From Gemmatimonadota bacterium (lineage in GTDB: Bacteria > Gemmatimonadota > Gemmatimonadetes > Longimicrobiales > Gaopeijiaceae): a stretch of 64,000 bases of DNA. The stretch lies in NCBI GenBank assembly GCA_030428885.1, contig JAUIEJ010000005.1:186001-250000 (forward strand). Direction: 5' to 3'. The translations under genes and the position numbers were made by a program. Shown here piece by piece: positions 17,530 through 27,774 of this stretch. Under the pieces are notes generated by a model, which had not been told where the DNA came from, made no database searches, and saw only the letters and a list, made by a program, of their open reading frames with translations. How positions within the stretch are numbered: position 1 is the first letter of the stretch; every line of letters starts with the position of its first letter.

Positions 17530-18879
17530 TCAGCCCACGGGGGTGATGGTCACCCGGATGCGCTGGTCCACGGCTCCGTACTCGTAGCCGTCGCCGACCT
17601 GGCGCACGGTGCCGTTCTCTGCCGCGCCCGTGTCGGGACCGGGCTGGCGCGGCGCCTGGAAGAGCCCCACGCCGGGGCGTTCGTTGACCTCGGTCCCGGC
17701 GTCCCACAGCAGGATCATGCCCGTGACGTCCCCGTTCACCGGCGCACCGCCGGGGAAGAGGTCGATGCCCGGTTCCGCCGGCGCGAAGAAGAGGTCGTTG
17801 GACTGCACGTACATCGTCGCCAGGGAGAGGCGGTCCCCCTCTTCGGCGGTGATGGTGAACGAGTAGCTGCCGCCGGGGGTGAGGGGGCCGGGGGAGGAGG
17901 CGCCGTCGGGAGTGTCGAAGGCCCCGGCGGCGCTCACCGACGCCCGGGTGGAGAGGGCGCTCACCAGGGGGCCCGGCGTCCCGTCTTCGGCCACGCCTTC
18001 CAGCCCCTCGCCCCGATCGGGGGATCCGGCCGAGAAGAGCACCGACGCACCGGTGTGGACGGCCCACGCCCCGGGCGACAGGACCCCGGTCACGCCGGTC
18101 TCGGCGGCCAGGGCCCCGGCCAGGGCCCCGGTGGTGCCGTCCTCGGCGACGCCCTCCAGCCCTTCGCCCCGATCGGGCATGCCGGCGGTGAAGAGGGGAT
18201 CGGCCTCGGAGTGCACCACGAAGACCCCCGGCGCCAGGGGCACCGGATGCATGCCGCCGTCGGAGGTGGAGAGGGTGGTGGTGGTGCTCACGTTCTCGAT
18301 GCGGGCCCGCCACGAGGTGGGGCCGGTGCTGGCGAGGGTGAGCCGGATCACGTCGGCCACGTCCGGGAGGTTGCCGAACGCATCCGCCGCGAGACGCACG
18401 TCGGTGTCCGGGTCGGCAGCTCCCACGTCGGCCCCGGACTGGCGGGGGGCCTGATCGGGGCCCAGACCCGGTTCGCCGTCGGCCTCGGTGCCGGCGTCCC
18501 AGAGCTGGAGCGCGCTGGTGACGTCGCCCGTCACCTGGTCGCCCCCGGCGGTCCAGAGGGCGATGCCGTCGCCGTCCGGAGCGTAGAAGAAGTCGTTGGA
18601 CTGGACCATCATGGTGGCCAGCGACAGGCGCGCCCCCGGGGGCGCCGAGAACTCGAACTCGTACGCATCGCCCGGAAAGAGGGGACCGGGCGCGTCGGCT
18701 CCCACGGGCATGGCGAAGGCGCCGCTGCTCGGATAGGCGTAGGCGCCGGAGACGTTTTCGACGGTGACCTGGAACATGGCGGTCTGGGCGGGGGCCGTGA
18801 CGTCGTCGTCGTCACAGGCCCCCAGGGTCACCAGACCCGCCAGGGCCAGGGTGCGAAGGGCGGTGGAAGCGTGGTTCAT
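17530..18879 (-). CDS. Lipoprotein with two spondin-like domains
   Basis: This 449-aa protein is read from the ATG at 18879. The lipoprotein signal LALAGLVTLGAC is followed by an acidic DDDD, which suggests retention or export signals. Two spondin_N-like domains are evident. The first (about 30-185) has FQVTVENVSGAYA and LATMMVQSNDFFYAPDG. The second (about 215-449) starts with ARIENVSTTTTL and has LATMYVQSNDLFFAPAE. Both have ALQLWDAGTE or ILLWDAGTEVNE followed by QAPRQ. The second contains an extra internal duplication, with DRGEGLEGVAEDGT present twice. Spondin_N proteins are surface or adhesion proteins of unclear bacterial role. It is divergent from the OsmC-type gene. Confidence 0.8.
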   Translation of the reverse strand: MNHASTALRTLALAGLVTLGACDDDDVTAPAQTAMFQVTVENVSGAYAYPSSGAFAMPVGADAPGPLFPGDAYEFEFSAPPGARLSLATMMVQSNDFFYAPDGDGIALWTAGGDQVTGDVTSALQLWDAGTEADGEPGLGPDQAPRQSGADVGAADPDTDVRLAADAFGNLPDVADVIRLTLASTGPTSWRARIENVSTTTTLSTSDGGMHPVPLAPGVFVVHSEADPLFTAGMPDRGEGLEGVAEDGTTGALAGALAAETGVTGVLSPGAWAVHTGASVLFSAGSPDRGEGLEGVAEDGTPGPLVSALSTRASVSAAGAFDTPDGASSPGPLTPGGSYSFTITAEEGDRLSLATMYVQSNDLFFAPAEPGIDLFPGGAPVNGDVTGMILLWDAGTEVNERPGVGLFQAPRQPGPDTGAAENGTVRQVGDGYEYGAVDQRIRVTITPVG

Positions 18880-19179
18880 GGGACGGCCTCTGGGTTCGGT
18901 TCCGATGCCGGGCCGGCCGACCCGGCCGGTCCCGCGTGTTTCATCGGACCACCTGTCACAACCTCCGTGCCCCCTTCGGTCCAGAGCGCCGCCCCCCGGC
19001 GGTTCGTGGCGTCCCACAGCCACGAACCGGACGTCGATCCGCCTCGAGCGGGGTCGGTCGCTCCGTTTCACGAAACACGGGCCGGGCCTCCATGAAACAC
19101 CCATGAACCGCCGGTGGCGGAGCCGGCCCCGGCGGGACTACACTCCCCCCGTCGTCCGCATCCTTCCACGGAGTCCCCC
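18880..19179. promoter_or_regulatory. Divergent regulatory region between spondin lipoprotein and OsmC gene
   Basis: No gene is seen in these 300 bp. They hold a perfect 11-bp inverted repeat with 8-nt loop (19000-19010 with 19019-19029) and three related GTTTC/GAAAC elements: GTGTTTCAT at 18936-18944, the palindrome-like GTTTCACGAAAC at 19065-19076, and CATGAAACAC at 19091-19100. These could be operators for the two divergent genes. The motif is reminiscent of TTTCAGATGAAA at 6844. GGAG at 19170-19173 is the ribosome site for the ATG at 19180. Confidence 0.5.
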
Positions 19180-19650
19180 ATGAGCGAGAGCCCCTACGTT
19201 TCGAAGTCCCGGGTCCACAAGGTGGCCGGCGTCACCCGGCGCGGCGTGCTGGAAGACGGAACCGAGGTGACTTTCGGTGTCCACGGCCCCATCAAGGCGG
19301 CCTACGGCCTCGACGCCGAACCCGATCACCCCCTTCCCGTGGACTTCCTGGTGGCGGCGGCCTGCGCCTGACTACTGGGAACCCTCAACGGCGCACTGGA
19401 GGTGCGCGGGATCTCGCTGGACCCGGCCCACATCGTGGCCGACGCTCGGGGCGTGCACGCCCTCCGGGACCGGATTCCGGTGCTGGAGCGCATCGACGTC
19501 CACTACACCCTCCGGATTCCCGCCGGCTCCCGGGAGACGGTGGACCGGGCGCTGTCGCGCCATCTGGAGAAGTGCCCCACGGCCCGGAGCCTCGAGGGCG
19601 CGGTGACCATGGCCTGGACCGCCGACATCACGGAAGAGGCCGGGACCTGA
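19180..19650 (+). CDS. OsmC-family protein, predicted selenoprotein (in-frame TGA = Sec64)
   Basis: Read from the ATG at 19180 (GGAG six bases upstream), the frame is open to 19650 except for one TGA at 19369-19371, codon 64. The protein on both sides is one OsmC/Ohr-type domain: PLPVDFLVAAACA, then the TGA, then LLGTLNGALEVRGISLDP, and later IDVHYTLRIPAG and HLEKCPTARSLEGAVTMAW, with the second conserved Cys at 132. In OsmC proteins the position at TGA is the reactive cysteine (compare AAGGCSA in E. coli YhfA), so TGA most likely encodes selenocysteine. A SECIS-like hairpin follows. OsmC/Ohr enzymes reduce organic hydroperoxides using a Cys pair. The total is 156 residues including Sec, normal for the family. 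A nonsense mutation is the alternative. Confidence 0.8.
19382..19410 (+). promoter_or_regulatory. Bacterial SECIS-like hairpin within the OsmC reading frame
   Basis: A perfect 6-bp stem, GCGCAC (19391-19396) with GTGCGC (19402-19407), closes a 5-nt loop TGGAG whose second base is G. CCC/GGG (19382-19384 with 19408-19410) extends the stem across a 6-nt left bulge. The loop begins 25 nt after the TGA, within the 16-37 nt range used in bacterial SECIS models, which also ask for a G in the first two loop bases. Confidence 0.65.
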
Positions 19651-19702: not shown

Positions 19703-19894
19703 ATGGCGACCTACACCTGCGCCAAGTGCGGCATGAGCGTGAACATGACCTGCGCGACCTGCGACAAGGAGCTCGTCCACGACTCCATCACCACCGACAC
19801 CGGGGTCCAGGTGGCCGTGTCGAAGTGCCCCGACGGGCACGGCATGATCAAGTCGCCCCAGTGCTGTGCCCAGGACATGAGCTGCGAGATATGA
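19703..19894 (+). CDS. 63-aa cysteine-rich zinc-ribbon protein
   Basis: This very small protein carries CAKC at 6-9, CATC at 17-20, a later Cys at 42 and CCAQDMSC at 54-61, giving enough cysteines for one or two zinc sites. It resembles a family of stand-alone mini zinc ribbons I have seen in Gemmatimonadota and Bacteroidota-type genomes, with no assigned role. The ATG has GGAG about 9 bases upstream. It follows the OsmC gene by 52 bp; TAGATTTC at 19651 could be its own promoter. Cotranscription with a redox protein might hint at a thiol or metal role; this is inference only. Confidence 0.75.
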   Translation: MATYTCAKCGMSVNMTCATCDKELVHDSITTDTGVQVAVSKCPDGHGMIKSPQCCAQDMSCEI

Positions 19895-22956: not shown

Positions 22957-27633
<4,677 letters not shown>

Positions 27634-27774
27634 GGCGGCGCAGCGCGGATCGTGGGCGGTGGGACCCGTGGATCGGGTCGGGTGGCGGGGTGTAGTCCCC
27701 TTCGGTCCAATCGTCGGCGCTCGGGAGCGCTGATTCAAGCGTTGACCACCCTCGTCCAGGAAGCCGAGTCCATC

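What the first reader, a model, noticed from the sequence alone, without database searches (positions are those of the whole stretch)
19180..19650. OsmC-family gene with in-frame TGA at the catalytic-cysteine position: predicted selenoprotein
The frame continues unbroken on both sides of TGA (19369-19371) as one OsmC domain. The stop replaces the family's reactive cysteine (residue 64); the resolving-type Cys132 is present. A hairpin with GCGCAC/GTGCGC and loop TGGAG starts its loop 25 nt after the TGA, within the SECIS range for bacteria. All three elements coincide. Sec-containing OsmC-like proteins have been predicted before from metagenomes, but would be notable in this phylum and imply selABCD in the genome.
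Basis: partly seen in the sequence, partly recalled or inferred. Interest (0 to 1): 0.85.

Follow-up and report, generated by a model that had tools for sequence, protein, structure and literature searches.

The report
Selenocysteine-containing OsmC-type peroxidase gene
A bacterium of the phylum Gemmatimonadota carries a small detoxification-type gene whose internal "stop" codon is almost certainly read as the rare amino acid selenocysteine; the same stop codon sits at the same place in every relative examined, so this is a real, selenium-dependent protein family and not a broken gene.

Summary
Window 19180-19650 (+) encodes one OsmC domain with an in-frame TGA (19369-19371) at residue 64, the reactive-cysteine position; Cys132 is present. 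The genome encodes selA, selB, selD (itself with a TGA at its catalytic Cys) and a tRNA-Sec. All 150 homologous loci read codon by codon (subfamilies A and B) carry TGA here; none has Cys; every listed match in two genome surveys (196 relatives, 395 of the phylum) also has a TGA. The hairpin is real: all six pairs form in 93/93 distinct subfamily-A sequences, with compensatory changes (GCA..GTG, GCG..GCG, GTG..GCA) and strong synonymous bias (Ala GCA 79/80 versus 8% elsewhere). Presence tracks selA (104/110 versus 38/86, P=1e-15). The part after the TGA is under purifying selection; the predicted fold is OsmC/Ohr (pLDDT 95). Sec-OsmC has been predicted since 2005, so the kind is known. This clade is new in being Sec-only, in scoring far below NCBI's Sec-OsmC cut-off (20 versus 95 bits), in its U-x-x-G-T motif and in its host phylum. 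Inferred function: selenoperoxidase, Sec64 peroxidatic, Cys132 resolving. Translation and activity are untested.

The parts
19180..19650 (+). Sec-osmC coding sequence, 156 codons including one Sec codon, final stop TGA 19648-19650 followed directly by TAG
   Evidence: single OsmC domain across the TGA; purifying selection on both sides
19369..19371 (+). TGA Sec codon, residue 64, at the position of the reactive (peroxidatic) cysteine
19391..19407 (+). bacterial-type SECIS hairpin: stem 19391-19396 / 19402-19407, loop TGGAG 19397-19401 with conserved G
19573..19575 (+). codon of Cys132, proposed resolving cysteine (CPT motif), invariant
19237..19239 (+). codon of Arg20, invariant; candidate counterpart of Ohr Arg19
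   Evidence: correspondence to Ohr Arg19 is inferred
19342..19344 (+). codon of Asp55 (Sec minus 9), invariant acidic residue where several OsmC-like Cys paralogues have Glu
   Evidence: role inferred

Best explanation
The gene encodes a selenocysteine-containing OsmC/Ohr-type protein. SelB with Sec-tRNA (anticodon UCA) reads the UGA at codon 64 as Sec, guided by the 6-bp hairpin 20-36 nt downstream, whose loop carries G at its second and third positions. The product most likely works as a small dimeric hydroperoxidase: Sec64 is the peroxidatic residue that attacks an organic hydroperoxide; the selenenic acid is resolved by Cys132 to a selenenylsulfide, which a dithiol reductant, plausibly a lipoylated protein as for Ohr, reduces again. 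Shown by computation: the reading frame, the Sec machinery, SECIS conservation, the fold, and invariance of U64 and C132. Inferred: actual Sec insertion, peroxidase chemistry, dimer, reductant. The stated confidence is for the Sec reading of an OsmC-fold redox protein; I put the peroxidase mechanism at about 0.6.
For: Sec machinery in the same genome: selB 317 bits, tRNA-Sec 74.5 bits with anticodon tca, selA 519 bits, selD 355 bits with TGA at its catalytic Cys. TGA in 150/150 homologous loci and in every listed match of a 196-genome and a 395-genome survey. SECIS: 93/93 distinct subfamily-A sequences form all six pairs; Ala+8 is GCA in 79/80 when paired to Val versus 8.2% elsewhere in the same genes, GCG in 28/31 when paired to Ala; Ala/Val swap with pairs kept in L074 and L148, C-G for G-C in L166; covariation 0.260 versus shuffled 0.117, 0/500. 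A third, separate Sec subfamily C has U-A in place of G-C in the same hairpin. Co-occurrence with selA: 104 of 110 versus 38 of 86, Fisher P=1e-15; selA also over cut-off in 6 of 8 host genomes mostly labelled as other phyla. dN/dS after the TGA 0.18-0.51. Model pLDDT 95.4; best PDB hits are OsmC and Ohr, including Ohr with dihydrolipoamide. U64 aligns with the Cys of 1ukk.
Against: No protein-level evidence of Sec. Six genomes with the gene lack a detected selA (G007, G062, G085, G100, G110, G124), five of them 63-89% complete, one 95%. Three of 20 distinct subfamily-B sequences (L050, L052, L056) keep the TGA without the six-pair stem. Peroxidase activity is not shown; the catalytic Glu of classical OsmC/Ohr (Cys minus 10) is not conserved, an Asp at minus 9 being the nearest acid.
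Confidence: 0.95

Rival explanations
1. Pseudogene or sequencing/assembly error: a Cys or Trp codon mutated or misread as TGA in this one assembly.
For: A single-base change from TGC, TGT or TGG would give TGA (sequence logic only).
Against: 150/150 homologous loci with the same TGA; all matches listed in a 395-genome survey have a TGA; purifying selection after the TGA.
Confidence: 0.005
2. The TGA is read as another amino acid (Trp, Cys) by a reassigned code or plain suppression, not by the Sec machinery.
For: TGA is in frame and conserved, which alone does not name the residue.
Against: The same gene ends in TGA, and a SECIS hairpin is conserved by covariation; tRNA-Sec, selA, selB, selD are present; gene presence tracks selA.
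Confidence: 0.015
3. Real selenoprotein, but not a peroxidase: an OsmC-like (COG1765/YhfA-like) redox protein acting on another substrate, for example persulfides, electrophiles or protein disulfides.
For: The classical Glu at Cys minus 10 is missing, and several Cys paralogues in the phylum that are matched best by the OsmC-like models have Glu at minus 9. Genome neighbours are not conserved enough to tell the substrate.
Against: U64, C132 and an Arg at position 20 are all invariant, as in Ohr/OsmC chemistry; the fold matches Ohr with dihydrolipoamide.
Confidence: 0.35
4. Regulated truncation: the short 63-residue product is the functional one and read-through is incidental.
For: None found beyond the TGA itself.
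Against: The half after the TGA is conserved, with invariant C132 and low dN/dS; 63 residues are not a whole OsmC fold.
Confidence: 0.01

Closest known systems
Sec-containing OsmC-like protein of Zhang and colleagues (Sargasso Sea 2005, PMC1088965; GOS 2008, PMC2398784; listed in reviews PMC9312934 and PMC13188914)
   Same: OsmC domain (COG1765/PF02566) with Sec at the redox position and a downstream bacterial SECIS.
   Different: Published motif is UxxT (3 sequences in 2005, 5 in 2008) with Cys homologues listed beside them; here the motif is U-[LM]-L-G-T (Thr at +4) and no Cys form was found in the clade. The published sequences themselves could not be aligned here.
NCBIfam NF041052 OsmC_like_Se (OsmC-related (seleno)protein)
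   Same: Only NCBIfam match of the window protein; covers the same domain.
   Different: 20 bits against a curated cut-off of 95; in this phylum most matches to that model are proteins without TGA.
OsmC of Thermus thermophilus (1ukk) and E. coli (1nye)
   Same: Fold; Sec64 aligns with the reactive Cys and Cys132 with the second Cys of 1ukk.
   Different: Cys instead of Sec; Glu at Cys minus 10 replaced by Val, Asp at minus 9.
Ohr (Xylella fastidiosa; Chromobacterium violaceum 6ebg)
   Same: Fold, two redox residues, conserved Arg; Ohr is reduced by lipoylated proteins (PMC5962072).
   Different: Cys-based; counterpart of catalytic Glu51 not conserved; about 17% identity.

Membership tests
Bacterial selenoproteins | In-frame UGA at a position where homologues have Cys | tested here: met
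   Alignment to 1ukk and Cys paralogues; TGA in 150/150 orthologous loci
Bacterial selenoproteins | SECIS hairpin directly downstream, small loop with G | tested here: met
   three of 20 subfamily-B sequences are exceptions
Bacterial selenoproteins | selA, selB, selC, selD in the genome | tested here: met
Bacterial selenoproteins | Selenium in the expressed protein | not testable with these tools
   Needs 75Se labelling or mass spectrometry
OsmC/Ohr superfamily (PF02566) | Domain match over the curated cut-off, and fold | tested here: met
   46.2 bits versus 27.5; Foldseek OsmC/Ohr at E about 1e-9
OsmC/Ohr superfamily (PF02566) | Second (resolving) Cys in a CPxxR-like motif | tested here: met
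   C132 P133 invariant
Classical OsmC/Ohr peroxidases | Catalytic Glu at Cys minus 10 (Glu51 of XfOhr) | tested here: not met
   Val54 at that position in the alignment to 1ukk; Asp55 at minus 9 invariant
Classical OsmC/Ohr peroxidases | Hydroperoxidase activity with lipoyl reductant | not testable with these tools
   Biochemical
NF041052 OsmC_like_Se | Score over the curated cut-off | tested here: not met
   20 bits versus 95 for the window protein
Published Sec-OsmC (UxxT) | UxxT motif | tested here: not met
   U-L-L-G-T here; Thr at +4

The most novel reading that the evidence does not exclude
Subfamilies A and B form an OsmC clade that has become strictly Sec-dependent: Sec at the reactive position is never replaced by Cys across Gemmatimonadota and the Eisenbacteria- and Acidobacteria-labelled genomes that carry it. 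A second Sec-OsmC lineage (subfamily C) arose separately within a Cys branch of the same phylum. The proteins would be lipoyl-linked selenoperoxidases tied to the 2-oxoglutarate dehydrogenase complex.
Probability: 0.3. Interest if true: 0.65.

Novelty: new variant of a known kind. Interest (0 to 1): 0.52.

Why it matters
Most selenoprotein families have many Cys counterparts; a widespread clade with none makes it possible to ask what Sec does that Cys cannot in an OsmC active site. The papers found here do not describe selenoproteins of this kind in Gemmatimonadota. Annotation that stops at TGA will truncate or miss well over a hundred such genes, and the curated NCBI Sec-OsmC model does not catch them. 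The hairpin, with Ala/Val exchanges dictated by base pairing, is a clean natural example of an RNA element shaping protein sequence.

Tried and rejected
Pseudogene or sequencing error: rejected by the homologues. Conserved operon as a guide to function: neighbours in the window (spondin-domain gene, Cys-rich 63-residue protein, DUF4010/MgtC membrane protein, PPIase) are shared almost only within the genus. The Cys-rich small protein as the known dual-CxxC selenoprotein NF041197: no match in the genome, though that search rang in no control either. A 2-oxoglutarate dehydrogenase E1 gene lies divergently near subfamily-A genes in 21 of 64 loci with enough flank, with a YfiH/LACC1-like gene between by inspection; suggestive of a lipoyl link but absent near the window gene, and E1 is not the lipoylated subunit. 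A first motif-based attempt to find the Cys paralogues failed and was replaced by an HMM search. Distances between U64, C132, R20 and D55 could not be measured, as model coordinates are not exposed.

Full report
What is there. Window 19180-19650 on the + strand is one reading frame of 156 residues once the TGA at 19369-19371 is read through; the frame ends at a second TGA (19648-19650) followed at once by TAG. Pfam sees one OsmC domain across the TGA, residues 48-145, 46.2 bits against a cut-off of 27.5. The TGA is codon 64. Aligned to solved Thermus OsmC (1ukk) it falls on the reactive cysteine, and Cys132 on the second cysteine. The Cys paralogues of the phylum have Cys at the same column.

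Is it a selenoprotein? The same genome holds selB (317 bits), a tRNA-Sec (74.5 bits, anticodon tca by ARAGORN), selA (519 bits) and selD (355 bits), all over their curated cut-offs. SelD is itself interrupted by a TGA at its catalytic cysteine, HGAGUACK. A survey of 196 related genomes found the protein in 110, and every match listed carried a TGA. A scan of 85,000 species genomes returned 80 loci, mostly Gemmatimonadota with a few labelled Eisenbacteria, Acidobacteria or Deltaproteobacteria; one of its two patterns, C[LM]LGTL[NVS]GAL, could only match a Cys form. Of all 150 homologous loci read codon by codon, 150 have TGA. A profile survey of 395 genomes of the phylum again listed only matches with a TGA. 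Some loci represent the same genome reached by two routes, so 150 is a count of loci, not of species.

The hairpin. GGC GCA CTG GAG GTG CGC gives a six-pair stem (19391-19396 with 19402-19407) and the loop TGGAG. In 93 of 93 distinct subfamily-A sequences all six pairs form; in subfamily B 17 of 20. The pairing rules the codons: when the partner is Val GTG, the Ala is GCA in 79 of 80 cases, against 8.2% GCA elsewhere in the same genes; when the partner is Ala GCG, it is GCG in 28 of 31. Two sequences with the amino acids swapped (Val-Leu-Glu-Ala) use GTG..GCA, and one (L166) exchanges the outer G-C for C-G. Pair counting on 83 distinct rows gives 98.2% paired cells, 43 doubly changed cells and covariation 0.260 against 0.117 after shuffling, 0 of 500 shuffles as high; sliding the partner by 1-3 columns gives 0.10 or less. 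A separate subfamily C, found in genomes of another family of the class, carries UTSMT and the stem TCGCGC/GCGCGA with U-A at the outer pair.

Co-occurrence and selection. Among 196 relatives selA is found in 104 of 110 genomes with the gene and 38 of 86 without it (P = 1e-15); the six exceptions are mostly incomplete genomes. Relatedness is not corrected for in this test. dN/dS after the TGA is 0.18-0.51 against the closest relatives.

Family. A tree places A and B together in one Sec-only group (95/98) and C inside a Cys branch (98/98), so Sec-OsmC arose at least twice or was lost in Cys relatives of C (long branches make deep nodes unsure). NCBI's model for Sec-OsmC, NF041052, gives 20 bits against a cut-off of 95, and most of its matches in the phylum have no TGA. 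Sec-OsmC was first predicted from the Sargasso Sea with motif UxxT, three sequences (PMC1088965), and is listed in later papers and reviews. No paper found connects it with Gemmatimonadota; only the open library was searched. The kind is therefore known; this clade is a new, Sec-only variant of it.

How it most likely works. AlphaFold gives an OsmC fold at pLDDT 95.4; the best structural matches are OsmC and Ohr, including Ohr bound to dihydrolipoamide. In Ohr the peroxidatic Cys reduces the hydroperoxide, the second Cys resolves it and a lipoylated protein reduces the disulfide (PMC5962072). By analogy Sec64 attacks the hydroperoxide and Cys132 resolves. Arg20 is invariant and may play Arg19 of Ohr; the classical Glu at minus 10 is missing and Asp55 at minus 9 is invariant instead. 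These roles are inference. In 21 of 64 subfamily-A loci a 2-oxoglutarate dehydrogenase E1 gene lies close by on the other strand, which fits a lipoyl link but is weak evidence and is not seen beside the window gene.

Limits. There are no protein data; distances in the active site could not be measured; three subfamily-B sequences lack the canonical stem and are unexplained.

Noticed in passing
L017 (G000:C15:127054-127992): SelD of this genome is itself a selenoprotein: HGAGUACKLG with TGA at the catalytic Cys.
   Followed up: partly
L194-L201: A third Sec-OsmC subfamily (C) in another family of the class, motif LGAU[TM]SMT, with its own hairpin TCGCGC-TGTAT-GCGCGA at about the same distance.
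   Followed up: partly
L050, L052, L056: Three subfamily-B genes keep the TGA but not the six-pair stem (GGA GCC CTG GAA GCC AGA/CGA); the SECIS may be shifted or of another shape.
   Followed up: partly
L092, L095, L099, L113, L117, L121, L133, L137, L153 and others: 2-oxoglutarate dehydrogenase E1 gene (-) close to Sec-osmC (+) in about a third of subfamily-A loci with enough flank, with a YfiH/LACC1-like gene (+) between in several.
   Followed up: partly
L181, L190: Cys-type OsmC domain at the end of a long frame that in L190 begins like an alpha/beta hydrolase: a hydrolase-OsmC fusion.
   Followed up: no
19703-19894: 63-residue protein with eight cysteines in CxxC, CC and single positions directly downstream; no Pfam or NCBIfam match; found only in close relatives (L023, L091).
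   Followed up: partly
22957-27738 (-): Long frame with formyltransferase-like, adenylation, luciferase-like monooxygenase and carrier regions by eye: a nonribosomal-peptide-type hybrid.
   Followed up: no
17530-19104 (-): Divergent neighbour is a protein with spondin domains (NF038123, 237 bits), conserved beside the gene only within the genus.
   Followed up: partly
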